Shown: piece after piece, positions 30,446 to 57,424 of the stretch | Position numbering within the stretch: position 1 is the stretch's first letter | Layout of the letters: each line of letters starts with the position of its first letter | IMG/VR virus record: IMGVR_UViG_3300042889_002648 | Coordinates: 1 to 64,000 of that record | Length of the DNA: 64,000 nucleotides | Reading direction: 5' to 3' (one strand) | From: a virus | The notes under the pieces: generated by a model | Told to the model about the DNA's origin: nothing | The model's database searches: none | The model's input: the letters and a program-made list of their open reading frames with translations, nothing else | Program-made: the position numbers and the translations under genes

Positions 30446-30765
30446 TGGTGGAGACGACGGGAGTTGAACCCGTGTCCATGACGTGTGCGATTATACAATC
30501 TACAACTTATTCTCATTTATTCAGACGAGACTCTTAGACACTTATCGTTGTGTCACGACAGCGTTATTCACAATGCTGTACAAATAGATACCGTTCGTGG
30601 TATCAACTATCCTATGCCGTGCGAATGACAATATAGGAGTCATGTCATTCGACTCACTTAAGCAGCGAGAGCAAGTGTATTTTTGCCGTTTAGTTTTTTG
30701 ACGAAGGGAGTCACCCGTGTGTTGCAATATAATCTCTCATGTCATGTCGAAACCATGACATCCCC
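30446..30765 (-). ncRNA. ssrA: Transfer-messenger RNA (tmRNA)
   Basis: 320 nt. The 5' end GGGGATGTCATGGTTTCGAC and 3' end GGGTTCAACTCCCGTCGTCT then CCACCA are the tmRNA tRNA-like domain; acceptor GGGGATG pairs with CGTCTCC. The tag frame reads GGC at 30685-30687 to TAA at 30658-30660: GKNTLALAA, ending like bacterial degradation tags (-LAA). Between them lie stems consistent with pseudoknots. Phage tmRNAs could free stalled ribosomes or retarget host proteolysis. It sits inside the tRNA array. Confidence 0.93.
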
Positions 30766-32232: not shown

Positions 32233-33006
32233 TTATTTATGTCTTCCAAATTTCCATCCATCAGGAGGTAATTCATTTTTTTCAATACGTGCAGATTTTG
32301 TTCCATTGTTAATCCAAACAGTATCAACACTTGAAAATTTCATATTACCAGAATCAATTTGTTTACGCATTCGAATTTTAGCCGAATCAGAAAGTTTTTT
32401 TCTAGTTTTTTTATCTAGTGTTTTACCTTTTCTATTTTTTATTTTTAATAAATGAAGACATTCAGATGAGCACGTTTTATATGTCTTAGAACATTTAAGC
32501 TTTAAAAAAGTACAATTACATATAACACATGTAAAAATTATTTCTATATTTTTCCACTTATTTCTTCCTAAAATCCATCCTTCTGGTATTTTGTCTTCTT
32601 TTAATATTTTTTTATTTTCTTGTAATTCAATATTGCACATCCAACGAGTTCCATATTGTGAATTGCACTCACCACTTTGAGAAATTTTCATACGTTTTGA
32701 TGCCAATTTAGAGTGATGTTTTCGAATTTCTTCATACAGACGAGAATTCTTAATATAGGATATACTGCGCTCTTCACATCGCATCGCCATCATATGGCAT
32801 GCATGAATTGTTTGACTATTCTTATGAATCTTATAAAGAAGGATGTGGGCGATCCAATGTTCTCTTCCAGTTAAAACTACTAGATTAGAAGTATCATCAG
32901 ATCCGCCCATTGATTTCATCAAGATATGGTGCTTTTCAGTATATCCAGTTGCCGGATTATTTTGTCGATATGAAATTAGATTATCGTAAATACGTTGGTA
33001 GTTCAT
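32233..33006 (-). CDS. HNH homing endonuclease inserted in a tRNA gene
   Basis: 257 aa from MNYQRIYDNL (33006). HNH core: TEKHHILMKSMGGSDDTSNL then VVLTGREHWIAHILL. Four Cys (CVICNC, CSSEC) suggest a zinc site at about 185-215. Two W-x-x-GR repeats (GWILGRNKW, GWKFGRHK) look like small DNA-binding modules. Its AT-richness and 5' junction inside a tRNA-Arg(ACG) mark it as a mobile insertion. The late box lies 5 nt before the ATG. Confidence 0.85.
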   Translation of the reverse strand: MNYQRIYDNLISYRQNNPATGYTEKHHILMKSMGGSDDTSNLVVLTGREHWIAHILLYKIHKNSQTIHACHMMAMRCEERSISYIKNSRLYEEIRKHHSKLASKRMKISQSGECNSQYGTRWMCNIELQENKKILKEDKIPEGWILGRNKWKNIEIIFTCVICNCTFLKLKCSKTYKTCSSECLHLLKIKNRKGKTLDKKTRKKLSDSAKIRMRKQIDSGNMKFSSVDTVWINNGTKSARIEKNELPPDGWKFGRHK

Positions 33007-33011
33007 AAATG

Positions 33012-33019
33012 TATTTATA
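33012..33019 (-). promoter_or_regulatory. T4-type late promoter box, HNH gene
   Basis: TATAAATA, 5 nt before the ATG at 33006 and 16 nt after the broken tRNA. Confidence 0.65.
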
Positions 33020-33034
33020 CAAATGTGAACTTTA

Positions 33035-33093
33035 CGAACCCCGGACCTCACGGTTCGTAGCCGTGTGCTCTGATCCAGCTGAGCTAAGAGTGC
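33035..33093 (-). pseudogene. Truncated tRNA-Arg(ACG)
   Basis: Acceptor 5' strand GCACTCT, normal D arm, anticodon arm CACGG-CTACGAA-CCGTG (ACG) and the start of the T arm up to GGTTCG. The 3' part, including the acceptor partner AGAGTGC, is missing and replaced by the HNH promoter region. Confidence 0.88.
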
Positions 33094-33095
33094 AT

Positions 33096-33120
33096 AAAAA
33101 AAAGACTGCAAGATGCAGCC
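33096..33120 (-). terminator. Terminator after the 33151-33843 gene
   Basis: A 7-bp stem GGCTGCA/TGCAGTC with a 3-nt loop followed by eight U on the minus strand. It lies between the protein gene and the truncated tRNA. Confidence 0.8.
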
Positions 33121-53168: not shown

Positions 53169-53717
53169 TTACACATTTAAGCCACTCACTGCACGAGACT
53201 TTCGTCCAGAACTAAACGGCGTATTGGCCACAGGCGTGTTATCAGGCTCTGTTGAGATGTTTGCCATAGGATCACTAATATCATACAGTCTCATCTTTGG
53301 TAAATCAATTCCAATAGTAAATCGCTTGTTGGTTGTTGGATCATTGTACCGATTCTTAAGTTGCTTAACCATAATTTGATTCATCTTGTCAAGTTGTTCG
53401 GTGCGAATAAATGCAAGCATCAAATCGGCTGTTGCAGGTAGTCCAAAACTGTTTTTTGTTAAAATGCCGTTGCAGTAAAATAGGTTATCGCCTGAGGTTG
53501 AAATGTCTGTAGTTTCAACCTCACCAACATCCTCAATAGAAACAATAGGATCATTATAATTTAGGTTAAGATCACTTTTTGTATTCTTATCAATTTTTTC
53601 AGTTTCAAGCGCAATTAACATATCAGTTAATTCAAAAACATCGGTATGTTCGGACACCATACCCTTTGTGATAAGCTCATTTGCTTTAATTAGACAATAT
53701 TCTTCAAGCGGTTGCAT
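53169..53717 (-). CDS. 41C: gp41 helicase C-terminal piece behind a C-intein
   Basis: 182 aa. Residues about 55-89 (DPIVSIEDVGEVETTDISTS, then GDNLFYCNGILTKN) are the C-terminal half of a split intein, ending in Asn89 followed by Ser90. Residues 90-182 start SFGLPATADLMLAFIRTEQL and continue KQLKNRYNDPTTNKRF, matching the T4 gp41 end (ESAGLPATADFML). The usual penultimate His is Lys (TKN). The first 54 residues (LEEYCLIKANELITKGMVSE) are not intein-like; they may be a fused small protein. It overlaps the endonuclease gene by 14 bp. Confidence 0.85.
   Translation of the reverse strand: MQPLEEYCLIKANELITKGMVSEHTDVFELTDMLIALETEKIDKNTKSDLNLNYNDPIVSIEDVGEVETTDISTSGDNLFYCNGILTKNSFGLPATADLMLAFIRTEQLDKMNQIMVKQLKNRYNDPTTNKRFTIGIDLPKMRLYDISDPMANISTEPDNTPVANTPFSSGRKSRAVSGLNV
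53451..53555 (-). other. C-intein of split intein 2
   Basis: Residues 55-89 of the C-terminal helicase piece; block F-like NLFYCNGIL and block G-like LTKN|S. Partner N-intein is at 54800-55087. Confidence 0.8.
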
Positions 53718-54765
53718 AGTATTTTTCTTTAATATTTTGTGTTATAGTATTTCTTTTTAATTCAAGATCTTCGTCCGACCATACAATGTATAAATCATGG
53801 CCGTACTGTTTAATAGTATTTTCTTTAATATGGTTATAAGCAAGGTTTTCTTCTTTAGATCCAAAGCCTTTCCACTCAGTTTCAGGACGCGCGTGCCAAA
53901 ATGCACCATTATATTCAATTGTTATTTTTAATGATTGAATCGTAAAATCATAAAAGAAGTTCATGCCATTATAATGATGCGCAAATTCTTTACTTCCGCG
54001 AATGCCCCAAAAGATATCATTTTTATTAACACCTAGTTTTCTAATACTTTTATAAAGCGGGATGAAAAATTTAAGTGATTCCTTTGAGCATTTGCCATTC
54101 ACTGCAGTTGTGCCAAACCGTTCAATCAATGTAGCCTTTCGTTTTTCGTGCTGTGCTTTTAATTTAGTCGTACCTATATCAAACCCATATTTTTCAATAT
54201 AATTTGCATATGATAACTCAGATTTTATAGAAATTTGTTTTCTGAGAATTTCCGACTCGTTTAAATCATAGCCTCTAGCAATCCAATATTCAATACAATT
54301 GGGTAAATATTCTTTATAACTTAAGCTGTTCAATTTAAATTTATGATGCTTCTTCTTTGAGTTTTTACTTTGCAATTCAGAAACCTGCTTTTTGGCTTCT
54401 TCGGCAGATAAGCCTTTAGCAATCCAATAAGTAATCGTAAAGCATGAATTAATATTTACCGCTTTGGGCCGCGCCGCGTATGTGGTTTTTAACTTTTTAC
54501 CTGAGCCTAAGCCATGTCTAATATCCGCTTTACGATATTGATTATTAGATGAATTGTATTCTGTGAATAATGAAATATATGAATTTTCATTATTCATAAG
54601 TATGTCTTTAAACAATTCATATTTGCGCTTAAGGGACGATGATAGTTTTTTATGACCAATATATTCAGCTATAAATTGAATAAAATATTGTTTTTTATCA
54701 TCAGGCAATTTATTAATTATGTCACGTATGGGTTTTCTCTCTAATGGATCAGTAATAGCTATCAT
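53704..54765 (-). CDS. Homing endonuclease of the Vsr-like, fractured-gene type
   Basis: 353 aa. The C-terminal 110 residues have a Vsr/restriction-like fold pattern: NDIFWGIRGSKEFAHHYNGM, FFYDFTIQSLKITIEYNGAF then WHARPETEW, and KQYGHDLYIVWSDEDLE. Upstream are repeated small DNA-binding motifs (IEYWIARGYDLNE, ITYWIAKGLSAEEAKK). Such enzymes were described at broken split-intein loci in metagenomes (fractured genes). It separates two helicase pieces at exactly such a break and has its own late box. Confidence 0.85.
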   Translation of the reverse strand: MIAITDPLERKPIRDIINKLPDDKKQYFIQFIAEYIGHKKLSSSLKRKYELFKDILMNNENSYISLFTEYNSSNNQYRKADIRHGLGSGKKLKTTYAARPKAVNINSCFTITYWIAKGLSAEEAKKQVSELQSKNSKKKHHKFKLNSLSYKEYLPNCIEYWIARGYDLNESEILRKQISIKSELSYANYIEKYGFDIGTTKLKAQHEKRKATLIERFGTTAVNGKCSKESLKFFIPLYKSIRKLGVNKNDIFWGIRGSKEFAHHYNGMNFFYDFTIQSLKITIEYNGAFWHARPETEWKGFGSKEENLAYNHIKENTIKQYGHDLYIVWSDEDLELKRNTITQNIKEKYYATA

Positions 54766-54784
54766 AAAATCTGTAGTATGATAT

Positions 54785-54792
54785 TATTTATA
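54785..54792 (-). promoter_or_regulatory. T4-type late promoter box, Vsr-like endonuclease
   Basis: TATAAATA followed by A, 19 nt before the ATG at 54765; may also feed the C-terminal helicase piece. Confidence 0.65.
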
Positions 54793-54796
54793 ATAA

Positions 54797-55975
54797 TTAC
54801 ATTTTGCCGAGTACAACAGATAGAATGTCTGAAACATTTAATCCGGTATTAACACTAATACGTTTAACATTCCCATTGTTTTTACATGGAAATACATGAT
54901 CCTTCGAAACAATTATTGATTTACCGCTTTCGGTTGTAATCTTTACACAATCTTTCATCTTATTATGATGCTTAAACATTACTGTTTTATATTCATCATT
55001 TGCAGTAATTTGGTCACCTAGTTTAACTTCATCGAGTGTTTTAACTTGTCCATCACGCATAGTAACGGATTCAGTAATAGCAATACATTCACTTGTATCC
55101 GTAATTTCGATATCACTGCTGGAATATCCCGCTCTTGTAACTTGAGTTGCGCTCCAGATAGGAACATTAAATTCAACAGCCAATCCACGAATTTCTTCAG
55201 CAATACTTTTGATAAGACTATAAGTATTGACACTACCGCTCAATCCTTTCATGCGACTACTCGCGCAAATGTTTAGATAATCAATATAAATGATGTCTGG
55301 CTCAAACTTCTTTTTCAATTTGAGTTCAAGTAACAATGCGCGAAAGTGACCAACGTGTGCGCTCGCGGTTGGATATTCTTTGACAACAAGTTTACCTTTG
55401 GTTTTATCGCTAATACCTTTAACCTTTGTGTTGAATGATGCTTTAGTCAAGTCTTTTAATTGGTCAATACGAACATCAAAAAGATTGGCATCAATACGTT
55501 CTGCAATCTTTTCTTCAGCCATTTCCATTGTAATGTATAGTACATTACGACCTTGTGCCAATGCAGCGCTTGCCATGTGACACATACCTAAGCTCTTTCC
55601 GCAACCCGTATTATGTGAAGAAACACCATCAGTATAGTATCGGTGATTTTCATGCTCAACTTGAATATCAACGATTGGAATTTGCTTTCCTGTTTTTGTA
55701 ACAATACCAATTTGGTATCCGTCTTCAGTCAGATATTGCTGTTTTTTAAGAACTAGATCTTTTGCATATTGCCAACCATCAATAGTTTCAAACAAGTGAT
55801 TTTCATTGACTCGAATAACTTTTCCGCTATTAAGCAATAAAACGTATTCTTCCCACATTCCTTTATCAACAAATGCTGATACGGGAACAAAACCATCGGG
55901 TGAATCTACTTCTATTGTGTATCCTGCATTCAGGAGCTCTTCAATTTCTTTAATTTTAATAATTTTTTCGGTCAT
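54797..55975 (-). CDS. 41M: gp41 helicase middle piece flanked by two half-inteins
   Basis: 392 aa in three parts. Residues 1-122 are the C-intein of split intein 1, with VDSPDGFVPV, the block B-like VNENHLFET and block G VSSHN|T. Residues 123-296 are helicase: TGCGKSLGMC (Walker A end), NVLYITMEMAEEKIAERIDA, IIYIDYLNICAS (Walker B) and PIWSATQVTRAGYSSSD, as in T4 gp41. Residues 297-392 are an N-intein starting CIAITESVTM with VSKDHVFP (block B). It needs splicing at both ends. A sigma70-like promoter for it lies inside the opposite-strand HNH gene. Confidence 0.92.
   Translation of the reverse strand: MTEKIIKIKEIEELLNAGYTIEVDSPDGFVPVSAFVDKGMWEEYVLLLNSGKVIRVNENHLFETIDGWQYAKDLVLKKQQYLTEDGYQIGIVTKTGKQIPIVDIQVEHENHRYYTDGVSSHNTGCGKSLGMCHMASAALAQGRNVLYITMEMAEEKIAERIDANLFDVRIDQLKDLTKASFNTKVKGISDKTKGKLVVKEYPTASAHVGHFRALLLELKLKKKFEPDIIYIDYLNICASSRMKGLSGSVNTYSLIKSIAEEIRGLAVEFNVPIWSATQVTRAGYSSSDIEITDTSECIAITESVTMRDGQVKTLDEVKLGDQITANDEYKTVMFKHHNKMKDCVKITTESGKSIIVSKDHVFPCKNNGNVKRISVNTGLNVSDILSVVLGKM
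54800..55087 (-). other. N-intein of split intein 2 (96 residues)
   Basis: Begins with Cys after extein TDTSE. Blocks A (CIAITESVTM) and B (IIVSKDHVFP) are present; its length is like that of the known gp41-1 N-intein. Confidence 0.87.
55610..55975 (-). other. C-intein of split intein 1 (122 residues)
   Basis: Starts MTEKIIKIKEIEELLNAG, contains most intein blocks including block B, and ends SHN before Thr. It is unusually long because the break lies near the N-terminus of the intein. Confidence 0.87.
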
Positions 55976-55991
55976 ATAAAGGTGTGATTTG

Positions 55992-55999
55992 TATAAATA
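55992..55999 (+). promoter_or_regulatory. T4-type late promoter box, HNH gene (plus strand)
   Basis: TATAAATA on the plus strand, 29 nt before the chosen HNH start at 56029. Confidence 0.6.
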
Positions 56000-56028
56000 T
56001 AATGTTAGCTGGAACAGGAATCAATCTT

Positions 56029-56844
56029 ATGAAATTTTACGCTCGAATCTATTATAACATATGTAATGAAAATGTAAATAACAAAATTCATTATTGTAAA
56101 GGATCAAACATACATAAACATCATATCATTCCACGACATGCGGGCGGCGGAGAAGATGAAAGTAATTTTACTTACCTTAGTATTAGACAGCATATAGCAG
56201 CACATTTCTTATTGTGGAAAATTCATGGTATGGTTAATGACCTACGATCAATGCATATGCTAGGAGCAAATTTAACATATGAACAAAGACGTATTGTTGG
56301 CAAATGGTGTTATGAGAATAAGATAGGAATGTTTTCAATTGGTAAGGAAGATCGAGCTGAAATTTCACGTAAAGGAATTAAGACACAAATTAAAAATAAA
56401 TTAGGCATTCACAATCCAGAAAACTTTTCAAAATTTGCATCACTTGGTGGAAAAGCTTCAATAATTTCGCCCAATAACCCATGGGCGTATTGGGCCTCAA
56501 AGGAAGGCCGCTCGAAGCGTGGACATATGGGAGGAAAATCACATATTGGTAAATTATGGATTCATAAAAACGATGTTATAACACGATGTCTTTATAATGA
56601 AATTCAACAAAAAATTGATGAAGGATGGCAATACGGTATGAAAGATGGTGGAAAAGAATATGTGAATAACGGAGAAAAAACATTTCGTATTGAAACCAAT
56701 AAGATATTTGAATTGCTTTTGCGTGGTTGGCAATTAGGAAAAGCACGCAATTACCAACCAGATCGCAAGCGGTCTAAGAAAGAATTTTCTTATGAATCCT
56801 TACTCGAATTGGAGTCTCAGGGTGAACACAGCCGGCAAGAATAA
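56029..56844 (+). CDS. HNH homing endonuclease at the split-intein 1 break
   Basis: 271 aa from MKFYARIYYN (56029), preceded by AGGA; an earlier Met (56002) would lie too close to the late promoter. HNH core: HKHHIIPRHAGGGEDESNFT then LSIRQHIAAHFLLWKIHG. W-x-x-G repeats (GWQYGMKDGG, GWQLGKARN) follow. It is on the strand opposite to all neighbours. Its last 24 codons are antisense to the N-intein 1 region. It resembles the HNH at 32233-33006. Confidence 0.85.
   Translation: MKFYARIYYNICNENVNNKIHYCKGSNIHKHHIIPRHAGGGEDESNFTYLSIRQHIAAHFLLWKIHGMVNDLRSMHMLGANLTYEQRRIVGKWCYENKIGMFSIGKEDRAEISRKGIKTQIKNKLGIHNPENFSKFASLGGKASIISPNNPWAYWASKEGRSKRGHMGGKSHIGKLWIHKNDVITRCLYNEIQQKIDEGWQYGMKDGGKEYVNNGEKTFRIETNKIFELLLRGWQLGKARNYQPDRKRSKKEFSYESLLELESQGEHSRQE
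56051..56078 (-). promoter_or_regulatory. Sigma70-like promoter inside the HNH gene, for the helicase middle piece
   Basis: TTTACA (56073-56078) - 16 nt - TATAAT (56051-56056) on the minus strand, 75 nt before the ATG at 55975. Confidence 0.72.
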
Positions 56845-57424
56845 TATTAAGCGTCTTGCGTGGTATACCTCCGCCTGTAATAACATTAAACATATCAAGA
56901 TCAAATGGTATCTTATCTTCGGTCTTATGATAAAATTCATAACGGCTTTCAGCATTCTCAAGGTAATCGTGTCCTACATTTGTATCAAAAGTGACGCTTA
57001 ATGCTTTACTTAATATAGTAGGAATTGAGCCTTCACTCTTTTCAAGATCTTTACCATCAATGATAGAGATTGACTCCATGATGGCAAGATATACTGCACG
57101 GTCCTTACACCATTTTTCGGTACTATCAATAATCCATTGCTCGTCAACCGTTAGGTGTTCTGATAATGCATTGATGTAATAGTTAACCTCGGCTGCATTG
57201 GCATTACGACTAGCGTCAGACGCCTTATATTCAATACTTAATGCTGTACTGTTTGGCAGCTTATTATACTTGGTAATAAACTTTAAGATAGCCTCATATA
57301 TAGTGCGATGAATACCATCAAAATATTCAGGCTTTATGTGTGGCAGCGCTTTGCGACAAAATACTTCATTGTGTATAAGATTGTTAATGATTGTTGTTTC
57401 AAGATTTGTCTCCATGTTTTCCAA
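56774..57424 (-). CDS. 41N: gp41 helicase N-terminal piece ending in a very short N-intein
   Basis: 216 aa. Residues 1-198 are the DnaB-like N-domain and linker: NLIHNEVFCRKALPHIKPEY, PFDLDMFNVITGGGIPRKTL and NIILAG, which stops in the Walker A loop. Residues 199-216, CVHPETPIRVRIHKKILS, look like intein block A and then a stop. Joined to the middle piece at Thr123 this restores LAG-TGCGKS. It overlaps the upstream gene by 26 bp and the HNH gene (antisense) by 71 bp. Confidence 0.9.
   Translation of the reverse strand: MENMETNLETTIINNLIHNEVFCRKALPHIKPEYFDGIHRTIYEAILKFITKYNKLPNSTALSIEYKASDASRNANAAEVNYYINALSEHLTVDEQWIIDSTEKWCKDRAVYLAIMESISIIDGKDLEKSEGSIPTILSKALSVTFDTNVGHDYLENAESRYEFYHKTEDKIPFDLDMFNVITGGGIPRKTLNIILAGCVHPETPIRVRIHKKILS
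56777..56830 (-). other. N-intein of split intein 1 (18 residues)
   Basis: Cys199 to Ser216 of the N-terminal helicase piece. Only block A is present; block B is in the C-intein. This is the atypical split position. Confidence 0.8.

What the first reader, a model, noticed from the sequence alone, without database searches (positions are those of the whole stretch)
55610..56830. Atypically split intein: 18-residue N-intein and 122-residue C-intein
N-intein 1 is only CVHPETPIRVRIHKKILS, so the break falls just after block A, while block B and all later blocks are in the C-intein. Most natural split inteins break near residue 100. A few atypical ones with N-inteins of about 25 residues are known (AceL-TerL type). 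An 18-residue one would be at the short extreme.
Basis: partly seen in the sequence, partly recalled or inferred. Interest (0 to 1): 0.85.

Follow-up and report, generated by a model that had tools for sequence, protein, structure and literature searches.

The report
Phage helicase with short-split intein
A virus of bacteria encodes its DNA-unwinding enzyme in separate pieces that a self-cutting protein tag, broken after only 18 residues, should stitch together; such short breaks are already known, but many relatives show how a parasitic gene that jumped into the tag broke it, was later lost, and in one case let it fuse again.

Summary
On the minus strand, the N-terminal piece of a T4-type gp41 helicase ends LAG|CVHPETPIRVRIHKKILS-stop (N-intein 56777-56830). 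A separate gene starts with a 122-residue C-intein (55610-55975) and continues |TGCGKS. Splicing would rebuild the Walker A loop. It is not a sequencing error: of 62 distinct related rows with both splice junctions, 47 are split at this loop (N-intein 14-20 residues, mostly 16) and 15 are contiguous.

A contiguous relative, 94% identical over the last 109 residues, models as a Hint fold (pLDDT 96.5). Its best solved match is VidaL, a natural split intein with a 16-residue N-intein. So 18 is not the short extreme: VidaL has 16, PolB16 15, relatives here 14.

The gap holds an HNH homing-endonuclease gene on the opposite strand behind its own T4-type late promoter (35 of 36 such rows). Intein plus endonuclease moves as one unit: L060/L063 exteins are 72-79% identical, the element 99-100%. 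The split persists after endonuclease loss, and L093 is a contiguous intein whose linker still encodes the old promoter and start codon, so it apparently re-fused.

Verdict: new member of a known kind (S1-type split intein in a fractured gene), with an unusually readable evolutionary series. Splicing itself is untested.

The parts
56831..57424 (-). N-extein: N-terminal part of T4-type gp41 (DnaB-like) helicase, ending ...NIILAG
   Evidence: PHROG phrog_19 DnaB-like helicase, E 8.9e-42, residues 1-198; 50-54% identity to cyanophage gp41
56777..56830 (-). N-intein 1, 18 residues CVHPETPIRVRIHKKILS; stop codon 56774-56776
   Evidence: length and Cys1 conserved in relatives
56029..56844 (+). antisense HNH homing-endonuclease gene (ORF open from GTG 55984; likely start ATG 56029, 271 aa); its 3' end overlaps the whole N-intein and the end of the N-extein
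   Evidence: phrog_655 homing endonuclease E 3.8e-16; Pfam HNH E 0.006, below cut-off; the shorter start matches L014-type relatives
55992..55999 (+). T4-type late promoter TATAAATA for the antisense endonuclease gene
   Evidence: 24 sites in window, 7.9 expected; only 2 on the + strand, this being one; found in 39 of 47 split rows
55610..55975 (-). C-intein 1, 122 residues (blocks B, F, G), ending VSSHN
   Evidence: dN/dS 0.08
55025..55609 (-). C-extein 1: middle part of helicase, starting TGCGKS (Walker A)
   Evidence: Pfam DnaB_C E 3.5e-13; 60-65% identity to cyanophage gp41
54800..55024 (-). N-intein 2, 75 residues (CIAITES...), second conventionally split intein at DTSE|SFGLPATAD
   Evidence: Pfam Hint E 2.3e-6, just below cut-off; site uninterrupted in L030/L094
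53704..54765 (-). second homing-endonuclease-like ORF (353 aa) between the halves of intein 2
   Evidence: phrog_22677 and phrog_559 weak matches; late promoter TATAAATA at 54785-54792
53451..53717 (-). C-intein 2 (89 residues), ending GILTKN
   Evidence: sequence; junction set by the downstream helicase match
53169..53450 (-). C-extein 2: C-terminal part of helicase, SFGLPATAD...
   Evidence: phrog_19 E 1.2e-15

Best explanation
A natural class 1 trans-splicing intein, broken at the S1 position, interrupts the Walker A loop of a phage gp41 helicase. The two precursor proteins associate, Cys1 and Thr+1 carry out the acyl transfers, Asn122 cyclises, and LAG joins TGCGKS to restore the ATP-binding loop. 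The break was made by insertion of an HNH homing-endonuclease gene on the opposite strand, read from its own late promoter. N-intein, endonuclease gene and C-intein now move between phages as one homing unit. Shown: anatomy, conservation, fold of a near-identical contiguous relative, co-transfer, promoter-like sequence, endonuclease loss and one apparent re-fusion. Inferred: splicing, that the endonuclease insertion caused the break, the cutting site of the endonuclease, and the timing of expression.
For: Splice motifs and frames. Cys1 in 62/62 and terminal His-Asn in 77/77 distinct rows, +1 Thr or Ser throughout. Hint fold at pLDDT 96.5 for contiguous relative L012, with the break in the loop at residues 13-16 between strands 7-12 and 17-21. 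Best PDB match VidaL, TM 0.86, E 8.9e-12; profile E 8.4e-16. C-intein dN/dS 0.08. Homing unit: L060 vs L063 exteins 72.5/79.4% against N-intein 100%, gap 99.2%, C-intein 99.2%. Antisense HNH-type ORF in 36 of 47 split rows (my tally, three of them outside the script's motif); late promoter in 35 of those 36, and 39 of 47 against 1.4 expected overall. No RNA family in 53600-57000.
Against: No splicing assay. The window's own two halves could not be modelled as a complex; the model is of a contiguous relative (94% identical over the last 109 C-intein residues). In the window's clade no clear ribosome-binding site precedes the C-intein ATG. N-intein substitutions in the window's clade are too few to show purifying selection (dN/dS 1.9 on few events), although it is 0.20 in the L070 clade. 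Block B has Asn in place of the usual Thr (VNENH), a change whose effect is untested.
Confidence: 0.88

Rival explanations
1. The interruption is removed at the RNA level (an intron or a bypass element) so that a contiguous intein is translated and spliced in cis; the 18-residue ORF end is not a real N-intein terminus.
For: The antisense gene in the gap resembles HEG cargo of introns; contiguous alleles exist (L012).
Against: No Rfam match in 53600-57000 even at E<=1. In L027, L036 and L053 only 20-34 nt lie between the N-intein stop and the C-intein ATG, too little for a ribozyme, and the ATG of L053 has its own ribosome-binding site. Gap length varies from 20 to about 1,600 nt.
Confidence: 0.04
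2. The N-intein is a decayed remnant: endonuclease insertion killed splicing, and the helicase pieces act as separate subunits or the gene is dead.
For: A parasitic gene interrupts the ORF; no direct splicing data.
Against: Catalytic residues kept in every distinct row, C-intein dN/dS 0.08 and C-extein 0.06. Without splicing the Walker A loop is cut between LAG and TGCGKS.
Confidence: 0.05
3. The break is an assembly or sequencing error in a contiguous intein.
For: Close contiguous relatives exist (L012/L013).
Against: 47 distinct split rows from many metagenomes, most with a full-length conserved endonuclease gene in the gap.
Confidence: 0.005

Closest known systems
VidaL split intein (PDB 6vgv/6vgw; N-intein 16 aa)
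   Same: Same S1 break after strand beta 2, similar N-intein length, Cys1, same fold (TM 0.86), best PDB match by sequence and structure
   Different: Only about 29% identical in the structural alignment. VidaL resembles the UvsX P-loop branch (PA5oct, L041) rather than the gp41 branch; its host gene is recalled from memory as UvsX and was not verified here
PA5oct/MIJ3-group UvsX P-loop split intein (L041; unannotated)
   Same: 17-residue N-intein CLPETAKVKIRLSKKQS at GESG|SGKS, a 477-aa ORF in the gap, C-intein 42% identical to the window's
   Different: Host gene UvsX, +1 Ser, intervening ORF in sense orientation with no family match
PolB16 OarG split intein (N-intein 15 aa)
   Same: S1-type break, very short N-intein (PMC10189870, PMC13014065)
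   Different: Cysteine-less, in PolB, other sequence family; block B His dispensable there
AceL-TerL and GOS-TerL
   Same: Atypical split with short N-intein
   Different: S2 break after the first helix, 25 and 37 residues, TerL host gene (PMC11766414, PMC13014065)
Fractured genes (Dassa et al. 2009), including gp41-1 and gp41-8
   Same: Phage genes broken by split inteins with a free-standing endonuclease gene between the halves
   Different: gp41-1/-8 are canonically split; the gp41-1 site TRxGY|SSSDIE (recalled) is empty in the window. The paper is not held, so whether it lists this P-loop site was not checked

Membership tests
Class 1 intein (Hint) | Cys/Ser1, block B His, block F, terminal HN, +1 Cys/Ser/Thr | tested here: met
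   C1, VNENH, IVDIxVxHxNHRYY, SSHN|T invariant or nearly so; block B Thr is Asn
Class 1 intein (Hint) | Hint fold | tested here: met
   Model of contiguous relative L012, pLDDT 96.5; top PDB matches are inteins
Class 1 intein (Hint) | Protein splicing activity | not testable with these tools
   no experiment
Atypical S1-type split intein (VidaL type) | Two separate ORFs, break just after strand beta 2, N-intein of about 15-20 aa | tested here: met
   Break at loop 13-16 of the model; N-inteins 14-20 aa in 47 rows
Atypical S1-type split intein (VidaL type) | Homology to VidaL | tested here: met
AceL/GOS-TerL (S2) type | Break after the first alpha helix | tested here: not met
   First helix (24-30 of the model) lies wholly in the C-intein
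Fractured gene | Free-standing endonuclease gene between split-intein halves of one host gene | tested here: met
   phrog_655 homing endonuclease antisense in the gap
Fractured gene | Endonuclease of the Vsr-like family named by Dassa et al. | tested here: inconclusive
   Gap 1 holds an HNH enzyme instead; the gap 2 ORF has only weak PHROG matches; family definition recalled, not read
Group I/II intron | Catalytic intron RNA in the gap | tested here: not met
   No Rfam match at E<=1; gaps of 20-34 nt in some relatives

The most novel reading that the evidence does not exclude
In this gp41 intein family the split state is one stage of a reversible cycle: an antisense late-expressed homing endonuclease breaks the intein, moves with it, decays while the intein stays split, and deletion can fuse the halves again (L093, whose linker still encodes the promoter and start codon). 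Along the way N-inteins as short as 14 residues arise (L030, L102, L110), one residue shorter than the shortest natural one characterised.
Probability: 0.6. Interest if true: 0.7.

Novelty: new member of a known kind. Interest (0 to 1): 0.55.

Why it matters
Split inteins are laboratory tools and an evolutionary puzzle: how does an essential gene come to be broken, and can it go back? This family offers, at one host site, contiguous inteins, split ones with an intact endonuclease gene, split ones with a truncated or missing endonuclease, and at least one apparently re-fused allele, in some cases among near-identical inteins, so the steps can be tested pair by pair. It also supplies dozens of untested ultra-short N-inteins (14-20 residues, easily made by peptide synthesis), and a cultured phage relative (PA5oct UvsX) in which native trans-splicing could be looked for directly.

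Tried and rejected
Sequencing error or hidden continuation of the N-intein: rejected. Intron: rejected. AceL-type assignment: rejected on break position. Suppressed synonymous change in the window clade's N-intein as a sign of dual coding with the antisense gene: looked for, but all frames give similar values on few events, so no claim. Relatives in bacterial and archaeal genomes: none found. Annotated phages with this intein in gp41: none among the best matches listed; those were UvsX and TerL inteins, and the lower part of that list was not inspected. The Dassa 2009 and VidaL papers could not be read. Whether L012 is re-fused or ancestral: tree position favours re-fusion (nested with L004) but its linker carries no relic, so left open.

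Full report
1. The observation. The window is bases 1-64000 of a 100,774-base virus record. On the minus strand the first helicase piece (ORF 57424-56774) reads ...GGGIPRKTLNIILAG then CVHPETPIRVRIHKKILS and stops. A separate ORF (55975-54797) opens with a 122-residue C-intein ending VSSHN and runs on as TGCGKSLGMCHMASAA. Joined, LAG+TGCGKS is a Walker A loop, and both flanks match T4-type gp41 of cyanophages at 50-65% identity (PHROG phrog_19).

2. It is not an error. A scan of IMG/VR with the C-intein gave 40 loci, a profile scan kept 80 of 216 and two further scans added more. After collapsing identical rows, 47 are split at this place, 15 are contiguous and 15 are undecided (mostly contig ends). 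Rows are not independent lineages. N-intein lengths: 14 (3 rows), 15 (1), 16 (20), 17 (8), 18 (14), 20 (1). Cys1 is present in 62 of 62 and His-Asn in 77 of 77. None was found in bacterial or archaeal genomes. Among about 50,700 phage records the best C-intein matches were UvsX and TerL inteins, not gp41 (only the top 40 of 299 records were inspected).

3. Fold and break point. The contiguous relative L012 is 94% identical to the window over the last 109 residues. Its predicted structure, with 42 aligned family members, has mean pLDDT 96.5. Strands at 7-12 and 17-21 flank the loop where the split relatives are broken; the first helix, 24-30, is entirely in the C-intein. That is the S1 position of VidaL and PolB16, not the S2 position of AceL/GOS-TerL (PMC13014065). 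The best solved match is VidaL: TM 0.86, E 8.9e-12; profile E 8.4e-16.

4. What fills the break. The gap in the window holds an opposite-strand ORF matching homing endonucleases (phrog_655, E 3.8e-16) with an HNH motif. Its 3' end overlaps the whole N-intein. Of the 47 split rows I count 36 with such an antisense ORF, 3 with a sense ORF (L030, L055, L094) and 8 with none or a truncated one. In 39 of 47 rows the T4 late promoter TATAAATA, pointing along the antisense gene, lies within 110 nt upstream of the C-intein start; 1.4 were expected from shuffling. By my tally from that table it is present in 35 of 36 antisense rows, 0 of 3 sense rows and 4 of 8 rows without an intact gene. In the window TATAAATA is enriched (24 against 7.9 expected), and only two copies lie on the plus strand, one of them at 55992, just before this gene. 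That these are used late promoters is inferred from T4 knowledge.

5. It moves as a unit. L060 and L063 differ by 27.5% and 20.6% in the exteins, but their N-intein, endonuclease region and C-intein are 100%, 99.2% and 99.2% identical, with changes of identity at the splice junctions; L063 has lost about 320 bases of the endonuclease gene. The window against L004 shows the same pattern more weakly (exteins 66-77%, element 84-100%).

6. Loss and re-fusion. L027, L036, L053, L061, L102 and L110 are split with no endonuclease gene; L036, L053 and L110 keep the promoter relic. On the C-intein tree the split/contiguous state needs at least 11 changes (short alignment, many weak forks, root not inferred). 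L093 is contiguous and sister to split L077 (99/98). Its linker DNA, TATTTATATAAAAATATG..., matches the leader of the L077 C-intein through promoter and start codon: score 38 with 0 of 2000 dinucleotide shuffles as high, and a higher score than any other contiguous linker reaches against any split leader. The simplest reading is deletion of the endonuclease gene that joined the halves in frame. It rests on one contig.

7. Mechanism. Most likely: two precursors, association by the short N-intein strand filling the C-intein, class 1 splicing, helicase reconstituted. In the window a second, conventionally split intein breaks the same helicase (75-residue N part, 89-residue C part), so three polypeptides would be needed. 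Splicing and pairing specificity are inferred.

8. Known or new. S1-type split inteins and fractured phage genes are known, so the item itself is a new member of a known kind. The claim of an extreme length fails: 16 (VidaL) and 15 (PolB16) are published, and 14 occurs in relatives here. What appears unreported in the papers I could read is the size of this gp41 P-loop family, its antisense late-promoter endonucleases, and the re-fused relic. The founding fractured-gene paper and the VidaL paper were not available, so prior description of this site cannot be excluded.

Noticed in passing
53169-55024 (minus): Second split intein in the same helicase with a Vsr-like-looking ORF between its halves and its own late promoter; C-intein ends Lys-Asn instead of His-Asn.
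   Followed up: partly
L041 1203-4209 (Pseudomonas phage PA5oct): UvsX is encoded in two pieces around a 477-aa ORF, with a 17-residue N-intein at GESG|SGKS; annotated only as hypothetical protein and UvsX-like recombinase.
   Followed up: partly
L093 4001-4462: Contiguous intein whose linker encodes a relic antisense late promoter and start codon; apparent re-fusion of a split intein.
   Followed up: yes
L030, L094: Sense-oriented HNH genes in the same break whose 3' ends overlap the C-intein start codon; N-inteins of 14 and 15 residues.
   Followed up: partly
L069, L070, L073-L076, L078, L081: Between N-intein stop and antisense HNH gene lies an extra variable sense ORF of about 100-260 aa (e.g. 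MNSQEIRALQEAYMEVV) with no convincing family match.
   Followed up: no
30446-30765 (minus): tmRNA gene (tag GKNTLALAA) in a phage window with about 20 tRNA genes.
   Followed up: no
32233-33111 (minus): ORF with an HNH-like EKHHI motif inside the tRNA cluster, probably another free-standing homing endonuclease.
   Followed up: no
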